From Isoetes taiwanensis (Eukaryota; Streptophyta; Lycopodiopsida; Isoetales; Isoetaceae): a DNA stretch of 64,000 bases. Below the pieces are notes generated by a model. That model was given only the letters and a program-made list of their open reading frames with translations. It had not been told where the DNA came from and ran no database searches. Below, piece after piece: positions 1 to 41,726 of this stretch (position 1 is its first letter; every line of letters begins with the position of its first letter). The DNA lies in NCBI GenBank assembly GCA_021234155.1, contig JAJEKV010000049.1, positions 1,207,487 through 1,271,486 on the forward strand, written 5' to 3'. The translations under genes were made by a program, and so were the position numbers.

Positions 1-694
1 AAATGATAATCTGCAACCACAATTTATCGAACATAGTACATAATCTTATTAGGAATCAAACAAAATATTAATTACCTGGGAGTTGCCAAAGATATGGCTT
101 TTTCTTCAAAAAACAATTCCTCTATGGAACTTACCTTTCACTAGCTCCATGTGCATCATAAATTATGTCAAACATCTAATTGCAATTCTCAATTAACTTG
201 TCCCAGCCTAGACCAACTTTGTAGCAAAAAAAATATTTAGCTACATGAAGCTTAACACTAGAGTGGTCCCGGGGACTATTCCTGATCCATGGACCAGAAT
301 TGGTCCAATTGACCCACTTCCACTTAAACCAATATATCTGAGAATAGGAGTTTCAATTTCGCGATATATCGCCATCATATCAATCTTTACTTGATTCTTA
401 ATGATCTTCGAGAATTTCAAGGCCAATGAACTCACCTATATGATGTAGTGATTGTTCAAATATTAGAGAATTTGACAGTTTCTGCAACAGTTCAAAATTG
501 CATTCTTGGGTTTTCCTAGTATAAACAGGCCTAAACCTTGCTAAAATTGGAAGTATTTGTCTATTTATAATAGAACACATTGATTTGTATGTTTTCAGCT
601 TTGGTTGCTATCATATAACATCCGTGGAAGCCGGCAAATCCTATTTTGTTCAAAAATGCTGCGTGCGGTCTAGGAATTATTTCTCTCTTATATC

Positions 695-1276
695 ATGGCA
701 ATGGGGCCGCAGTGCCTCAAGGCCTGCTGGAGGGAAAAGAGAGCTCAATGGTTGGCTAGATGGAATGTGCAGGAGCACAGGTGTATACATGTGCAAACAG
801 AGGCAGATCGCCATAGCTTGAGGCAATATCTTGACGCTTGCTTCCTCAGCAAGCTTTGGGATGCCAATGATGTCAAGACAGCACACTACCAGCGCCACAT
901 AAATCCTGCATTGGAACGAGGCCCGCAATGCTACCTGCGTACCCACTTGCCCATGAAAAGGCGCAGACTCATTGCCTCCATTCGCACAGGGGCACATCAT
1001 CTTCGAATTGAGACGGGCAGATGGATTGGTGAGCCACGCCAGGACAGGCTTTGTCAATGCTGCCAAATGGGACTCATTGAGGATGAATCTCATACCCTTC
1101 AAAGTTGCCCAGCATATGATCAAATTTGGACGCACTATGCTGAGTTGGTCAGGCCTGGCCAGCCGTTACATGTGACATTGAGCACAGCATCCGTATGGGT
1201 GCTGGGATCATACCTTCAGGAGGTTATGGACATGCGAGATCAGCTATTCCCCCGGGCACACACTTGTACAGTTTGA
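695..1276 (+). pseudogene. LINE ORF2 C-terminus with zf-RVT zinc-binding domain
   Basis: The 193-residue frame is the C-terminal tail of a LINE reverse-transcriptase polyprotein, not a free-standing protein. The zinc-binding (zf-RVT) signature is visible as C-Q-C-C, then I-E-D-E-S-H, then H-x4-C (HTLQSC), followed by an IW motif. The preceding HHLRIETGRW stretch is the usual lead-in to this domain. The endonuclease and polymerase domains are absent, so the copy is 5'-truncated and inactive. The ATG is only the first in the open frame. The homologous frame at 11280-11612 on minus shares the same blocks, which supports family membership. In intact elements this region is thought to help bind RNA or DNA during target-primed reverse transcription. 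Confidence 0.75.
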
Positions 1277-1283
1277 CAGCATT

Positions 1284-1353
1284 CTTATTACTGCCACGGT
1301 TTTTCCCTCAAAAACCCTTCGGGGCGGGGGTTTTTAACCCGGACAGTAATAAG
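1284..1353 (+). ncRNA. Structured LINE 3'-UTR RNA, ENE-like candidate (copy 1)
   Basis: CTTATTACTG at 1284-1293 pairs perfectly with CAGTAATAAG at 1344-1353. Inside lie two facing U runs (UUUUU on each side), a GC-rich inner helix, an A-rich segment, and a CCC-UUCG-GGG cap. The core is shared with 11156-11222 and 39438-39516, while the outer stem sequence differs in all three. Function is inferred. A U-rich internal loop between GC helices is the hallmark of ENE elements that clamp a poly(A) or A-rich strand. Confidence 0.5.
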
Positions 1354-1379
1354 TTTGCTGCGCTCCTTATGGGTCCCAT

Positions 1380-1438
1380 AGGCCGATTGGCCTCAGTGGA
1401 CGATAAAAAATCATTCTCATTCTCATTCTTATTATTAC
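1380..1438 (+). repeat. LINE 3'-terminal stem-loop and microsatellite tail
   Basis: AGGCC-GATT-GGCCT at 1380-1393 forms a five-pair stem with a four-base loop. It is followed by GTGGACGATAAAAA and a TCATTC-rich tail. The equivalent position in three other copies is at 6775-6827, 11069-11125 and 47476-47520. The stem pairs differ but are preserved in three of the four copies. Confidence 0.6.
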
Positions 1439-11060: not shown

Positions 11061-11155
11061 TACAATTTAAAGGAAGGAAGGAAGGAAAGAAGGTATTTTT
11101 ATCGTCCACAGAGACCAATCGGTCTATGGGATCCAATACAAAAGCGCAGCAAGCA

Positions 11156-11222
11156 GATTACTACACGGATTAAAAAACCCCTGCCCCGAAGGGTTTTCGA
11201 GGGAAAAACCGTGATAGCAATC
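11156..11222 (-). ncRNA. Structured LINE 3'-UTR RNA, ENE-like candidate (copy 2)
   Basis: On the minus strand GAUUGCUA-U-CACGG (11222-11209) pairs with CCGUG-UAGUAAUC (11168-11156): eight pairs including one G-U, a bulged U, then five pairs. Within are UUUUU and UUUUUUAAU facing each other, CCC/GGG inner pairs, GAAAA, and a CCC-UUCG-GGG cap. The outer stem is unrelated in sequence to the other two copies, although its pairing is kept. Confidence 0.5.
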
Positions 11223-11279
11223 AGCCTGCTGACAAACTGTTCTAATATATGAAATGCAAAAACACATAAATATATACAC

Positions 11280-27883: not shown

Positions 27884-28966
27884 CTACACAGAATGCACAT
27901 AAACAAGATTCAGCCTTGGCCATATTGAATCTTTCTCTGTTGTCTTTGGCCTCACATAATAACGCTCTTCCAACATCAGGATTTTGATCACAGCAGCAGT
28001 TGCAGAAGCAGGGTTCTTCATGCCCGTACATATTTGGGGGTCCAAATACTTTGAGCCACTCCAAGTTGACATTGGGATCGATCTTCCTCCATTTGATCTT
28101 TCGCACCAGTATAAATATGATCCCTGAAAATAAAAATAAGGAAAGATCCATGAGTATAGTTTAGATGACAGCATTAATCCAATTAATATCATAAGTAATC
28201 TGTTTGATGACAGCTTCAGGGTGCGTGATTTCATGATTGAAAATGAAAGTGTTACGCCCTTTCCAGATAGAATATAAATCCTCCAATCATTCGAGCTGTG
28301 AGACATAAAGAAATCCAGGGAGCTCATAGAGGATAGATTATAACCAAAGAGGTTAGAGGCTAGATCCAGCACCCATTCCGACCAAATACACTTCCTGAAG
28401 AGATGATCCTTACCCTCTTTTTGCCCCAAACATCTGGGACAGACATCAGAGTCGGTCATCTGCATTCTGTATCTCTTATGGTTTGTAGCCAACACTTTAT
28501 GCCACAGTTGGCATATGAAGGACTTGATCTTAGAAAAAAATGGACTGGACCACATAAACTTTAAATTCCTCGAGCATCTGTCAGCCTCTGTTTGCCATTT
28601 GTCATGAATAGTCATTGTGTACTCCCTCATAAGGAACCTATATGCCATTCTGACAGTCAGAATGGTTTTGCCATGGTAATTCCAGTTACCCCCTCCATCA
28701 GACCATTCTCCATGAATCAATGTGGTACAAATATTATTGTATAGATTCTCGCAAGTATCTCCTTCTTCAGCCAGGATTGAGTCTCTGAAGGGGATGATCC
28801 CATCTTCATTGTACATATCCCTGATAAGGGTAATTCCCTTGGTCCTCCAGAGCTTGGCCTGATCTGGAAAATGGCAAGCTAAACATAAAGATGGATCATT
28901 AGTAAGAATAGCAGGGTTCCAAAAAATGGATTGGTCCATAGAAAGCCCCTCTTTGCAGTTGAACAC
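27884..28966 (-). pseudogene. LINE ORF2 C-terminal region with zf-RVT
   Basis: This is the continuation of the same ORF2 after the interruption at about 29100-29350. The LINE frame is still legible upstream to about 29105. The zinc-binding motif is C-P-R-C, eight residues, H, then L-F-R-K-C, followed by W. Upstream lies the tryptophan-rich FICQLWHKVLATN phrase. The 360-residue open frame ends at 27884 and is followed by a 3' UTR. It is structurally good but cut off from the polymerase domain, so it is non-functional. Confidence 0.82.
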
Positions 28967-29354
28967 TCCCCTGACCGAGTTCTAGGCCTTAATCCATTTC
29001 TTGATCAAAGCTGGAATGGATCTAGGGACAGTGAATGGAAAGTAAATAGAGTGAGGAAACCTTGACCTGCCTCCCATTGAGCGACAAACTTTATACAGAA
29101 AAAGGTAAATTTCCTACATAATTTAAGCTAGCAGGAAGCATTAAGCAAAAAAAACTAGTTTCCAGCCGGAAAATGTGAAGAATTCCATGGTTTTTTACCG
29201 GAAAACTTCCTGAGGATTTTTTTTTATATCGGAAATTCTTGATTTCAACAGGTAGGCTGCAAGGGTTCCCCGGAATTTGTCGTTCACTGCCTCCATCCAA
29301 AAGACCAACGTTTACTCAAGTAATGCCTAATGATGATGGAGATTGGATGCTTAC

Positions 29355-31796
29355 TCAGATTGTGGGCTGCTTAAAAAAATTCTTGGCAGCAAGTGCTAGG
29401 CCCTGCTTCTCGATGTTCATGACCCCCAGACCTCCTTCTTTCTTCTTTTTACAGCATTCCGTCATAGCTACTGGCGTCCAGCATCTTCTGTTCTGGCCAC
29501 ATGAGATATACCTGCCAATAATACTCTGCAGCTTATTAGATACTTTTTTGGGAGCCAGTATTACAGATGATTGATAGACATGAGAAGAGTAAATAACCGA
29601 GCTGGCAATGATTGCACGGCCCTGCTTAGAGATATACTTTGAATTAAGGCTATCTACCTTTCTTTGAAATTTCTCAGTGATATTTGTCCAAATGTCAGAA
29701 GGGCTGCCTTTTAAAGCAAAAGGGATGCCAAGAATTTTGGAAGAGTTGGTAGGGGTAATATACTTACAGCCCAGGAGATCAGTCGTATGCTCTCCCTTTA
29801 CCCGATCTTTGGCCAAAACTTTCGATTTAATAGGGTTGATCTTGCAGCCCGATACAGTTCCAAAGACCTCCAGAATGATTTGAGTATTGATGATCGACTG
29901 GTGGTCCATAGAAACTAGAATGAAGGTGTCATCTGCAAAATGACCATTCAAAATCTGATCCACTCCCTCATTATTATCCGGAAGATTTAAACCTTGCTTA
30001 GAGTTCTTAGCATCCTCCAATTTACAATGAAGGGCCTCCATGATAATAAGGAAAAGAAAGGGGGCCAGAGGGCACCCTTGCTTTACCCCTCTTTTCAGAG
30101 GAAAAAATGGGCTACATTCCCCGTTAATGAGGACTGAGGATCTTGAGTTGGTGAGGATAGCTCTAAATATGTGAATCACCTCGTTGGAGAAGCCCATAGC
30201 CCTGCATCACTTAAAGAGGAAATTCTAGCTCACTGTATCAAAAGCCTTAGTTATATCTAGCTTGATTAGGGCAATGTCCTGATTGGAGTCCTTGGCCCAG
30301 TTGAGGCCTAGAATAGCTGTAACTACATTATCCAAAACAAACCTGTCTTTAAGATAGGCAGCCTGAGAGGAGCTAATAATCTTATCCAGAACAGGTTTGA
30401 GTCTCCTGGCAATCGTCCCTGAGATGAGCTTGTAAACCACATTAGAGAGAGATATTGGCCTGTAATCTGAGAAGGAAGCCGGCATATCCACCTTAGGAAT
30501 AAGTGTTATCAAATTGGTATTTATTCTGGCATCCATACATTTCTTGTCCCTGAACTCATTAGCTAAGCTCGTAACACAGTCCCCGATAATTGGCCATGCT
30601 TTTAGAAAGAATTCAACTGGGAGGCCACCTGGCCCTAGAGTTTTACCCTTGTCCACTCCCCTGGCTGTATGGAAGATCTCAATATTGGTGAAGGGCCTGT
30701 CTAGAGAAAGGTTGTCTTCATCTGTGACTTTATGCTGGATGTTTATGAATTCATCCATATTGTTATACATGCAGTCGTAATTGGTTCCCATAATGTTGGT
30801 AAAGTGCTCTGTGGCTGCTTTTTTAATTTGATCTTCCTCCACAATGACATCATCCCCAACCTTGATGTCAAAGATGTGATTTCTCTTAATTCTCCCTTTT
30901 GCTTTAGCAAAGAAAAACTTCGAGCTGCATCTTTCGTCATCCTTTATCTCTCTTATCTTGGCTTTGAGCCTCCACCCTTGGGCAATTATAATTTCTTCTC
31001 TTTCAATGTCTGCCCTAATATTGTCCTCCATTGCCTCTGGAGCATGAGGAAGAGATTTCCTAAGATTGTGGAGTAAAGCCATTTTCTGCTCATGGATGCT
31101 TTTGCCCCATTCCTTTAGCCAGTTCTTAATGGCCTTGGACACTGTTATCCACCAGAACATCCAGCCAGATGGTCCTCCAGGCTTGGGAAACTTAGAGATA
31201 ACCTGTTGTAACCTGTCCAGGAAGTCATCTTGATCCAACAGATTAGTATTCAGCTTAAAATAAGTTCTTTTCTTTTTAACCACATTCCTATCAGAAATAA
31301 TCAACTGCTGGGGATAGTGGTCTGAGAGAGTATACCCTTCCATGTTATCCATCCTATTACAATAATTCCAAAGATTTTCAGATAGGTAGAACCTGTCATG
31401 GAGGCAAAGGGTAGGATCACTTCTCTTATCCGTCCAGCTGTAAGAATTAGGCTTCGTCCAATATGAGATTGTGACCATTGATGAGATTCCTCCATGCATT
31501 TTTCTCTTGAGCCCCCAAAGGCCTGAAGTTCGTTCATAAAATTGTTAGTAACCATGTTAAGGTCACCCCCTAAAATACATTCATCAAATTCTAAATTATC
31601 TAGACTATTTTTAACTCTGTTCCAAATTCCTACCCTGTCACCTGGATTATTAAAGGCATAGATATTAACTAAAGCCATCCTTATTCCAAGCAGTGTACAC
31701 AATAAAATCTGCCACCTACCATCCCTGCCATTAACCATATACATATCAGACATATTGAGATTATTCCTCCAAGCCACAGCAATTCCTGCAGAGATC
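29355..31796 (-). pseudogene. LINE ORF2: endonuclease and reverse transcriptase, broken
   Basis: Reading on minus, the AP-endonuclease-like part shows VNIYAFNNP and ECILGGDLNMV, then a frameshift near 31495, then the LSDHYP motif of the endonuclease C-terminus. The reverse transcriptase follows with SDYRPISLSNVVYKL, KLDITKAFDTVS, KRGVKQGCPLAPFLF and the catalytic FADD in HFADDTFILVSMD. Two nonsense codons, at about 30225 and 30207, interrupt the palm region between KAFDTVS and MGFSNEV. The endonuclease N-terminus is missing because of 5' truncation. The frame closes at 29355 in an interruption of the thumb region. In an active element this protein nicks the target and copies the RNA from the nick; this copy cannot. 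Confidence 0.88.
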
Positions 31797-31818
31797 CCAT
31801 TTTATATTCTAGAGATCC

Positions 31819-39240: not shown

Positions 39241-40610
39241 ATTCTAGAATGGGACTCGCATGAAACCAACAAACCGCCCGATAGATAGGCTTCTCATTCA
39301 TCTCAGCAGATTTTCTACAATGGTGGATAGTGGGTAGCCGCACACATGCAAACTACCCACGAAAATAAAGGGAAAATCCAATTATATCATTTGGACCCCA
39401 AAAATACAATGCTAACAGATGTTCGGCTGGTGTACCTGCCGAAAGCTTATCACCGGGATTAAAAAACCCCGCCCTTTCGGGTTTTCGAGGAAAAACCCTA
39501 GTGATAAACCTTCGGCAAGAGGCTTAGACAAACGCAAGGCAGAGAAATCGCTCCCAAAACCCACGAATGGAGAAGTCGAAACAAATGCCGCTCGCCAACC
39601 TGTACCTGCACATCACCAACACCACAAAAACAAAACAAAACAAACCTCCCAGAGTGGAGGGGCTGATTATGCGCGTGCCACGCGACAAATATAATAAACA
39701 AAGAAGGGGAGGGTGGGTTCAAAGAGAAAGAGGCTTCACTGAGAGAAGAAGAGGCGCCCGATGAGGAGTCGATGCGTAAACGCCCCTAAAATAGCAAACT
39801 CCCAACGGAATGGGCATGCGCACCGCGCATGCATGCAAAACATGCATGCTCGTCCCATTCTAGAATGGCGATCCAATGTCTCGGATCGATGGGATTCTAG
39901 AATGGGACTCGCATGAAACCAACAAACCGCCCGAATACCAAAGGACTTCCTTACAAACTAGGATCGAGGACGAAGGTCACAGGACAAAGGCTAAAGGCCG
40001 AAAAAGGACAGCATAAAAGAAACGCCAAATTGGCCAAACCAGGCAGGGAGAAGCCCCTCCCCTGCCTGGAAACAATTCAAAGAGAAAGAGGTACTGCTGA
40101 GAGAGAAGAGGAAGCGCCGATGAAGAGTCGATGCAGAACTAAAAAAGCGAACTCCCAACCAGAATGGGCATGCGCCGCCCGCATGCATGCAAAACATGCA
40201 TGCTCGTCCCATTCTAGAATGGCGATCCGATGTCTCGGATCGATGGGATTCTAGAATGGGACTCGCATGAAACTCAACAAACCGCCCGAATACCAAAGGA
40301 CTTCCTTACAAACTAGGATCGAGGATGAAGGTCACAGGACGAAGGCTAAAGGCCGAAAAAGGACAGCATAAAAGAAACGCCAAATTGGCCAAACCAGGCA
40401 GGGAGAAGCCCCTCCCCTGCCTGGAAACAATTCAAAGAGAAAGAGGTACTGCTGAGAGAGAAGAGGAAGCGTCGATGAGGAGTCGATGCAGAAACGCGCC
40501 TAAAATAGCGAACTCCCAACCAGAATGGGCATGCGCCGCCCGCATGCATGCAAAACATGCATGCTCGTCCCATTCTAGAATGGCGATCCAATGTCTCGGA
40601 TCGATGGGAT
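39241..40610. repeat. Tandem array of palindrome-rich units
   Basis: Three units start at ATTCTAGAATGGGACTCGC: 39241-39893 (653 bp, with a different middle), 39894-40247 (354 bp) and 40248-40610 (363 bp). The two short units each carry CCAGGCAGGG with its inverse, CATGCATG-CAAAA-CATGCATG, the 14-base palindrome CCATTCTAGAATGG, and CGATC-CGA around TGTC. The long unit lacks the first of these. Open frames of about 110 residues in the two short units are parallel by-products of the repeat. Confidence 0.85.
39438..39516 (-). ncRNA. Structured RNA, ENE-like candidate (copy 3)
   Basis: On minus, a 16-pair outer stem joins GCCGAAGGUUUAUCAC and GUGAUAAGCUUUCGGC. Inside are UUUUU and UUUUUU runs, an A-rich segment, and a CCC-GAAA-GGG cap in place of the UUCG cap of the other two copies. 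No LINE coding sequence or LINE terminal stem-loop flanks it; it sits in the long unit of the 39241-40610 array. Confidence 0.5.
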
Positions 40611-41726
40611 TGGAAAGTATTACATCTTTGTTTGATAAGGATGCACATCATTAACAAAGTATTAGACTATATCAAATCTCTAGGTCATTATATACTGCAG
40701 TATTTTTTTCTTTAGATTAATAGAATCCATTTATTGACCCTACAGCAATCATATGTTTCTTCTTTAGAGTAATTTTCTTCCAGAATGTATGTTTGAGATA
40801 AGTTGATAAACCAAGTCTGTCATCAGATGCGTAGTTATCATGTGCGAGAATGAAATGTTTTGGCTTTCCAGTTAAGATTGTCCCCGGACTTTGTTAGATC
40901 ACCAGTGGTGAATAGCAACAATTATGAGGTATAACTTAGCCTTTTAGTGACATGATGGCTTTGCAATGAACATATATGATTAAGGCTTTATAGTTTGCAA
41001 ATACTTATTTGCTTAAATGGATTTACAAATTTTTATATGTGCAACCTATAGAGGCAAGATTTCTAGGTATTGTTACAAGTCTTATCACAGATGCAGAAGG
41101 AAGGAGATGTGCACATATCTCAGGTCACAGGTCAGGGTGATGTTGGGCAAAATGGGTGGCATATAGAGTCACTCCTTTTCCTTGCATTGGAGTAACCATA
41201 GTCATGTTCAGCTACCTTGATGCAATCTTAGAGATTCCATTGAGCTAACTAATATATGAGAACCATTCATTTTTCTTTTTTCACACAATAATTAAAGCCG
41301 TATGATTATTCACGTCTATACCAGTTGAGCAATATGGGAGATATATTTGCTTCTAGATTCTTTTTGTTTTTATTGCATATCCAGAGTGTTCTCTGAAATA
41401 ATTATTTATGGTTATAATTGTGCGGATCTAAATGTCATTTATTGTATAATATTTGATTCATTTAAAACCCTGAAGGCACATGCTACGATGTTTTCTTTCT
41501 ATTATCCAAGATCTTGACAGTCATAATAAATATCCTTTATTATAATTTGATTTTATTGCTTTAAGCATTGGTTTTAGACCATCTAATAATTCTATTAACA
41601 CTACTATGTCCATTATAACCATATAAGACATTTTGACCGTTTACATTTTCCCTCAAGGCCCATAAATACAACTTATATTTTATGGTATGCCATTGCACTT
41701 AACTTCTGTTGCTAAAAGTGTTACTA
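40611..41726. other. A+T-rich stretch, no gene recognised
   Basis: Nothing supported. Confidence 0.5.

What the first reader, a model, noticed from the sequence alone, without database searches (positions are those of the whole stretch)
1284..1353. Conserved structured RNA shared by three loci, resembling an ENE element
The loci 1284-1353 (+), 11156-11222 (-) and 39438-39516 (-) share a core of UUUUU facing UUUUU(U)AA, between an outer stem and GC pairs, an A-rich strand, and a capped hairpin. The outer stems are unrelated in sequence (CTTATTACTG; GATTGCTA/CACGG; a 16-pair stem) but pair fully. The cap swaps UUCG for GAAA while keeping CCC/GGG. Unrelated paired sequences around a fixed core are the signature of selection on RNA structure. 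A U-rich internal loop between helices is known from ENE elements, some in plant transposons, that protect RNA by binding poly(A). Here the LINE copies end in microsatellites rather than poly(A), so the A-rich strand may be internal.
Basis: partly seen in the sequence, partly recalled or inferred. Interest (0 to 1): 0.88.

Follow-up and report, generated by a model that had tools for sequence, protein, structure and literature searches.

The report
ENE-like RNA hairpin shared by transposons
Thousands of jumping-gene copies of at least two unrelated types in a plant genome (probably a quillwort) carry the same U-rich RNA hairpin near their ends, which most likely clasps an A-rich RNA tail to protect the RNA; such tail-clasping hairpins are known from other plant transposons, but these carriers look new.

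Summary
The three loci are real and share one RNA architecture: a long outer stem, UUUUU facing UUUUU(U)AA between G-C pairs, a 4-5 bp C/G helix, an A-rich bulge, and a CCC-tetraloop-GGG cap. Loci 1 and 2 are 3' UTRs of LINE copies (5,291 core matches genome-wide, reversed control 0). Locus 3 is not a LINE: it lies in a 1.0-1.4 kb non-autonomous, Helitron-like element (4,060 near matches). A third carrier family has another outer stem and GYGA loops. A covariance model built from LINE copies finds both other families at 41-62 bits, against 29-41 for sequence alone: unrelated stems pair in the same frame. LINE subfamilies show compensatory changes. Best reading: an ENE-like poly(A)/A-tract clasp that protects transposon RNA (about 0.57). 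ENEs in plant transposons are published; my search listings (all capped) showed none in LINEs or Helitron-like elements, but the key 2016 survey was not readable here. The internal A strand seems dispensable: one amplified LINE subfamily has AAACAA there (93 of 100 listed matches), with both U runs kept in the two copies read whole. Energies alone do not exclude a self-paired A strand. Nothing was tested biochemically. New variant of a known kind.

The parts
1276..1364 (+). ENE-like hairpin, copy 1, in the 3' end of a LINE (U1 1300-1304, C/G helix 1305-1309 with 1326-1330, A-run 1310-1314, CCC-UUCG-GGG 1315-1324, U2 1331-1335)
   Evidence: 98.9 bits, E 6.4e-21; the model was built from other LINE copies of the same family
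674..1276 (+). C-terminal part of the LINE open reading frame (Cys/His-rich motif by eye), ending just before the hairpin
   Evidence: no Pfam match here; RVT_1 matched only weakly in a longer relative, L017 (22.9 bits against a cut-off of 29.6)
1371..1412 (+). conserved LINE 3' tail: GGGTCCCATAGGCC GATT GGCCTCAGTGGAC hairpin plus GATAAAAAATC A-run (1405-1410), followed by the CATTCT microsatellite
   Evidence: (14,281 tail matches genome-wide at up to 3 mismatches, reversed control 0)
11143..11232 (-). ENE-like hairpin, copy 2, in the 3' end of a second LINE copy (subfamily A4-like)
   Evidence: 94.0 bits, E 9.1e-20
11096..11134 (-). LINE 3' tail of copy 2, followed by a CTTC-type microsatellite
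   Evidence: inverted repeat I7
39431..39520 (-). ENE-like hairpin, copy 3, with an unrelated outer stem and a GAAA cap
   Evidence: 59.0 bits, E 1.7e-11; 35.1 bits with sequence alone
39241..40611 (-). family B: non-autonomous Helitron-like element carrying copy 3; 355-bp head-to-tail units, start TCCCATCG, end CTAGAA, no target-site duplication seen by eye

Best explanation
The hairpin is an ENE-like RNA stability element in the 3' region of transposon transcripts. Shown: in three element families of this genome (a LINE family and two Helitron-like ones) an outer stem of about 20-23 bp, whose sequence differs between families, holds a nearly fixed core in which UUUUU faces UUUUU(U)AA between G-C pairs. 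[quoted passage not shown] The A strand is most likely a poly(A) tail added after transcription (lost on reverse transcription, because LINE copies end in microsatellites), or less likely the encoded A4-6 run at the LINE 3' end. The tetraloop cap and the C/G helix lock the top of the loop. The role of the A-rich bulge is not explained.
For: Folding z-scores -3.5 to -7.5. Genome-wide 5,291 core matches in LINE type and 4,060 in the GAAA-loop type (up to 2 mismatches), reversed controls 0. The covariance model from 15 LINE loci finds 15 of 15 further plant loci tested (B, C and two divergent LINE loci; 40.9-62.1 bits), while the best of 38 bacterial/archaeal loci that contain the 18-mer by chance scores 30.1 and the next 20.2. 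Structure adds 22-24 bits for five intact family B copies, 9-14 for three divergent ones (L081, L082, L085), 19-26 for family C hits, and about 8 for the two window LINE copies. In the 15 LINE loci 9 of 30 pairs change on both sides (shuffled mean 4.9, reached in 4 of 500), covariation score 0.165 against 0.126 (0 of 500), and 2-4 such pairs when slid. Among 7 LINE subfamily sequences the core is 90% identical, stems 77-79%, flanks 62-66%. The anatomy equals published ENE descriptions: U-rich internal loop on both strands (PMC8704770, passages read), G-C pairs next to the U tracts essential, 3' UTR location in a plant retrotransposon (PMC12501189, abstract and sections 3, 5, 9 read). In copy 1 the second U run ends about 76 nt before the LINE end.
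Against: No binding, half-life or expression data. LINE copies end in microsatellites, not poly(A), so the A strand is not seen in DNA. GAAAA is kept across families, which an ENE does not need; in tail-sampled LINE copies it is kept about as well as the first U run (4 or more A in 21 of 28, U1 of 5 or more in 18 of 28). In 3 of 4 sequences the fold with the A-run paired to U2 is cheaper than the nested fold with U1 held open. One covariation measure shows no excess (further pair types 22 against 21.4; 211 of 500 shuffles). For L018 the structure model scores lower than sequence alone at its main hit (52.4 against 62.1), and for L034 barely higher (41.1 against 40.0). The opposite strand of copy 1 also scores 29.5 bits, so palindromic stems alone earn some score. 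Rfam gives no match at gathering score. The one autonomous Helitron 3' region read (L260) has no such core. Most A and all C loci were fetched through core patterns, so core conservation is partly selection by me; the 40 tail-sampled loci are the fair sample: 28 of 40 match a relaxed core, one of these (L104) wrongly by eye.
Confidence: 0.57

Rival explanations
1. In LINEs the hairpin is part of the 3' signal that the LINE reverse transcriptase recognises to start target-primed reverse transcription (stringent-type LINE).
For: It lies in the LINE 3' UTR, some 7-20 nt before the conserved tail, and stringent LINEs need a 3' stem-loop (PMC4176376 and PMC3747384, passages read). Core and tail are equally conserved between subfamilies (90% each).
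Against: Families B and C carry the same core without the LINE tail; by eye they show no microsatellite or A-rich end and no target-site duplication (not tested further). The LINE tail has a hairpin of its own (AGRCC-N4-GGYCT) that fits the recognition role.
Confidence: 0.2
2. Self-contained triplex or switch: GAAAACCC pairs with GGGGUUUU and the first U run lies in its major groove; the RNA may toggle between this and the open U loop.
For: The A-run is kept in A1-A6, B and C; forced A-run:U2 folds cost 0, 1.3, 1.7 and 3.2 kcal/mol in four sequences and beat the nested fold with U1 open in three of them; in A5 and A6 they predominate (pairing probability 0.62 and 0.68).
Against: The subfamily A8 pattern (167 matches; of 100 listed 93 AAACAA, 3 AAATAA, 4 AAAAAA) mostly interrupts the A-run, and the two tail-sampled copies (L096, L099) keep both U runs. 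U-G/U-A/C-G exchange at one pair of the C/G helix, paired in 15 of 15, favours the nested fold; a GAGG strand, as in family C, weakens the alternative.
Confidence: 0.15
3. DNA-level inverted repeat with a role in transposition or an accident of repeat families, no RNA function.
For: Long inverted repeats are common in such elements, and most copies look dead.
Against: The unpaired U runs, A-run and capped loop belong to the best kept part; LINEs and Helitron-like elements move by different routes; GNRA and UUCG loops are RNA-type caps; in B the hairpin lies about 190 nt from the element end, not at it.
Confidence: 0.06

Closest known systems
ENE of the Arabidopsis Copia93/Evade retrotransposon (PMC12501189)
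   Same: U-rich internal loops between G-C pairs in a plant transposon 3' UTR; reported to form a triple helix with poly(A) and block deadenylation
   Different: Evade is an LTR element with four U-rich tracts; here LINE and Helitron-like elements, one U loop, a conserved A-rich bulge, thousands of copies, no encoded poly(A)
Double ENE of the rice hAT transposon TWIFB1 and the roughly 200 transposon ENEs of Tycowski et al. 2016 (papers not held; known from passages of PMC10855403, PMC12501189, PMC10078130 and a recalled abstract)
   Same: Hairpin with U-rich internal loop near transposon RNA 3' ends
   Different: Only one U-rich loop here; carriers differ as far as the passages I read say
MALAT1/MEN-beta 3' triple helix (named in passages of PMC8704770 and PMC10855403; details recalled)
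   Same: Two U runs could take up an encoded A-rich tract downstream; LINE ends have an encoded A4-6 run
   Different: The run is short, about 70 nt away in copy 1, and not shown to be at the RNA 3' end
Stringent-type LINE 3' tail stem-loops (UnaL2, ZfL2, maize/sorghum L1; PMC4176376, PMC3747384, passages)
   Same: Conserved structured LINE 3' UTR; end repeats other than poly(A) occur
   Different: Here a second, larger element precedes the tail hairpin and is shared with non-LINE elements

Membership tests
ENE | Internal loop with U-rich tracts on both strands | tested here: met
   UUUUU facing UUUUU(U)AA in copies 1-3 and in representatives of families A, B, C
ENE | G-C pairs directly next to the U-rich tracts | tested here: met
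   GG/CC below and CC/GG above in copies 1-3 and in the family representatives
ENE | No more than about five U-A-U triples (criterion recalled from the 2016 abstract) | tested here: met
   the first U run is five long in copies 1-3 and invariant in the 15 loci; several of these loci were fetched through it
ENE | Location near the RNA 3' end or poly(A) tail | tested here: inconclusive
   about 76 nt before the LINE end in copy 1, about 190 nt before the end of element B; transcript ends unknown
ENE | Triple helix with poly(A) or an A-rich tract | not testable with these tools
   No binding data; LINE copies end in microsatellites, with an A4-6 run before them
ENE | Raises RNA level or half-life | not testable with these tools
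   none
Double ENE (dENE) | Two U-rich internal loops in one hairpin | tested here: not met
   one U-rich loop; the upper asymmetric loop is A-rich
Stringent LINE recognition stem-loop | Found only with the cognate LINE (or partner SINE) tail | tested here: not met
   same core in families B and C without the LINE tail
Helitron-like element (family B carrier) | Head-to-tail copies and no target-site duplication | tested here: met
   tandem junction CTAGAA-TCCC; no duplication seen by eye in 24 of 30 loci with a readable, non-tandem left flank (2 no match, 3 tandem, 1 unreadable)
Helitron-like element (family B carrier) | Insertion between A and T | tested here: inconclusive
   A before TCCC in 22 of those 24, and T after CTAGAA in most, but without empty sites these bases may belong to the element
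Helitron-like element (family B carrier) | Canonical CTRR 3' end with adjacent short hairpin | tested here: inconclusive
   ends CTAGAA; TTCTAGAA is seen at or just past the 3' end in 10 of 12 family C loci shown and recurs behind an autonomous Helitron frame in L260

The most novel reading that the evidence does not exclude
One modular RNA clasp is shared between retrotransposons and rolling-circle-type DNA elements of the same genome and, in LINEs that end in microsatellites, acts on the element's own encoded 3' A-run (or on its internal A-run), so that it both protects the RNA and sets the 3' end that is offered to the reverse transcriptase: a poly(A)-independent ENE coupled to retrotransposition.
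Probability: 0.15. Interest if true: 0.82.

Novelty: new variant of a known kind. Interest (0 to 1): 0.6.

Why it matters
If true, ENE-like clasps are not confined to hAT and LTR elements but protect LINE and Helitron-like RNAs too, in a lycophyte, at thousands of copies. LINEs without poly(A) then pose a direct test of what the clasp holds. The natural set of unrelated outer stems, several tetraloops and an A-run variant around one core is a ready mutational series for the mechanism.

Tried and rejected
Rfam: no family at gathering score in the window; permissive searches of two short stretches gave hits far below gathering scores, the best mir-9413 at 26.1 bits against 100 (E 0.002), read as a generic hairpin match. 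An exact-pattern scan of viral contigs gave 0. Helitron autonomy: the one autonomous Helitron 3' region that could be fetched has no core. LINE clade left open: RVT_1 below cut-off, no informative PDB match.

A trap: raw copies L109, L121 and L124 read ATCG where their relatives read ACTG, and L109 matches this with CGAT in the other arm, a seeming double compensation. Such copies also carry small indels. I suspect base-calling errors at CTG/CAG sites in a poorly polished repeat, which would hit both arms of an inverted repeat alike (not tested), so I left them out of the 15-locus count. The 15 loci were picked by me to represent subfamilies, from 53 distinct sequences extracted; of the 93 loci given there 30 were skipped by the extraction pattern and the other 10 were duplicates. 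The seven subfamily sequences were typed from the consensuses and from single loci (L019, L096), with A3 and A4 adjusted by eye to single loci. Scores of models R1 and R2 are not strictly on one scale (effective sequence numbers 1.37 and 2.75).

Full report
Observation. The three stretches are in the window and fold as described, below shuffled energies. The 5' core word occurs three times in the window where shuffles give none; the 3' core word alone is not rarer than chance. The hairpins are longer than stated: 1276-1364 (+), 11143-11232 (-), 39431-39520 (-).

Where it comes from. The assembly is 1.658 Gb and fits the published Isoetes taiwanensis assembly by size; this is an inference. The word GGTTTTTCCYYNRAAAACCC occurs 5,291 times, the GAAA-capped form 4,060 times at up to two mismatches; the patterns read backwards give 0.

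Carrier A is a LINE. Copies 1 and 2 follow the C-terminus of a LINE reading frame (YADD motif in L025; weak RVT_1 match in L017), and precede a conserved tail with its own small hairpin, an A4-6 run and a microsatellite. The tail has 14,281 matches at up to 3 mismatches. Forty loci were taken through the tail, not the core: 28 of 40 match a relaxed core pattern, one of which (L104) is by eye a 5'-truncated copy; 12 do not match, three of them (L105, L116, L123) diverged and nine truncated or partial by eye. Truncation from the 5' side is as expected of LINEs. Of the 28, the first U run is pure and 5 or more long in 18, the second in 24, and the A-run 4 or more in 21.

Carrier B holds copy 3. 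It is 1.0-1.4 kb, built of 355-bp head-to-tail units, with the hairpin in a unique segment of the last unit. It starts TCCCATCG and ends CTAGAA; the base before is A in 22 of 24 readable non-tandem left flanks (of 30 loci), and by eye no target-site duplication is seen. TTCTAGAA is seen at or just past the 3' end in 10 of 12 carrier C loci shown and recurs behind an autonomous Helitron frame. I call B and C Helitron-like, not proven; they may be kin.

Carrier C was found by asking for other tetraloops: GCGA/GTGA caps, a different outer stem, fold z -7.5. Between C subfamilies (L129 against four loci) the stem keeps 80-87% identity where nearby flanks keep 67-72% (the core itself was a search condition there).

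Structure is under selection. A covariance model from 15 LINE loci finds copy 3 at 59.0 bits, seven other family B loci at 40.9-58.8, and family C hits at 58.6-62.1; without structure they score 28.8-41.1. The two window LINE copies gain about 8 bits from structure; of two divergent LINE loci, L034 gains 1.1, and L018 loses 9.7 at one hit and gains 4.2 at another. All 15 further plant loci were found; of 38 bacterial or archaeal loci that hold the 18-mer by chance the best scored 30.1 and the next 20.2. The opposite strand of copy 1 scores 29.5, so palindromy alone earns some score. In the LINE alignment 9 of 30 pairs show changes on both sides (shuffled mean 4.9; 4 of 500 reach it; slid structures 2-4), with a covariation score above all 500 shuffles, but no excess in further pair types (22 against 21.4); RNAalifold on its own predicts 27 pairs, 7 with such changes. 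These controls do not remove relatedness entirely. Core identity between seven subfamily sequences is 90% against 62-66% in flanks, equal to the LINE tail.

Which fold, which A strand. The nested fold (CCC-loop-GGG on a C/G helix) is supported by U-G, U-A and C-G exchange at one pair, kept in 15 of 15, and by swaps among stable tetraloops. A rival fold, GAAAACCC with GGGGUUUU, is within 0-3.2 kcal/mol of the best fold in the four sequences tried, and in three of them lower than the nested fold with the first U run held open; it predominates in subfamilies A5 and A6. The A8 pattern has 167 matches; of 100 listed 93 read AAACAA, 3 AAATAA, 4 AAAAAA (the pattern fixes the first U run). Its two tail-sampled members, with AAATAA and AAACAA, keep both U runs. 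So the U runs can outlast the internal A-run, as an ENE with an outside A strand predicts; two whole copies are a small sample.

Known kinds. Passages of PMC8704770 define the ENE as a hairpin with a U-rich internal loop that takes up poly(A). [quoted passage not shown] PMC10855403 names the rice hAT double ENE. The 2016 survey and the double-ENE structure paper are not held, so I cannot say whether LINE or lycophyte ENEs are in them. The listings of three searches showed none, but they are capped (15 of 763, 10 of 15 and 8 of 203 papers).

Verdict. The finding is real and widened: a shared, structure-selected RNA domain in a LINE family and two Helitron-like families. ENE-like function is the best explanation and remains untested.

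Noticed in passing
window 1371-1412 (+) and 11096-11134 (-): LINE 3' tail has its own small hairpin AGRCC-N4-GGYCT with A-U/G-C exchange between copies (AGACC..GGTCT, AGGCC..GGCCT), probably the reverse transcriptase recognition site.
   Followed up: partly
window 39377-39395 (-) and L085: Family B has a small hairpin downstream, UCCAA-AUGAUAUAA-UUGGA in the window and UCCAG-GUGAUAUAA-CUGGA in L085: one compensatory exchange with the loop kept.
   Followed up: no
L109, L121, L124: Copies with ATCG for ACTG in the stem, matched by CGAT in the other arm in L109; may be base-calling error at CTG/CAG sites that mimics compensation.
   Followed up: no
L249: Family C units repeat about every 5.27 kb at this locus, with a 161-aa frame downstream of one hairpin; a further hairpin there has an AAAA loop.
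   Followed up: partly
L260 2104-2810: Repeated TTCTAGAA words behind an autonomous Helitron frame, the same word seen at the ends of families B and C.
   Followed up: no
window 27884-31801 (-): Open frames with a FADD-type reverse transcriptase motif, apparently another, different LINE.
   Followed up: no
L034 1527-1616: A divergent LINE hairpin (GAAAU bulge, UUAU loop) stands just downstream of a broken copy of the usual core.
   Followed up: no
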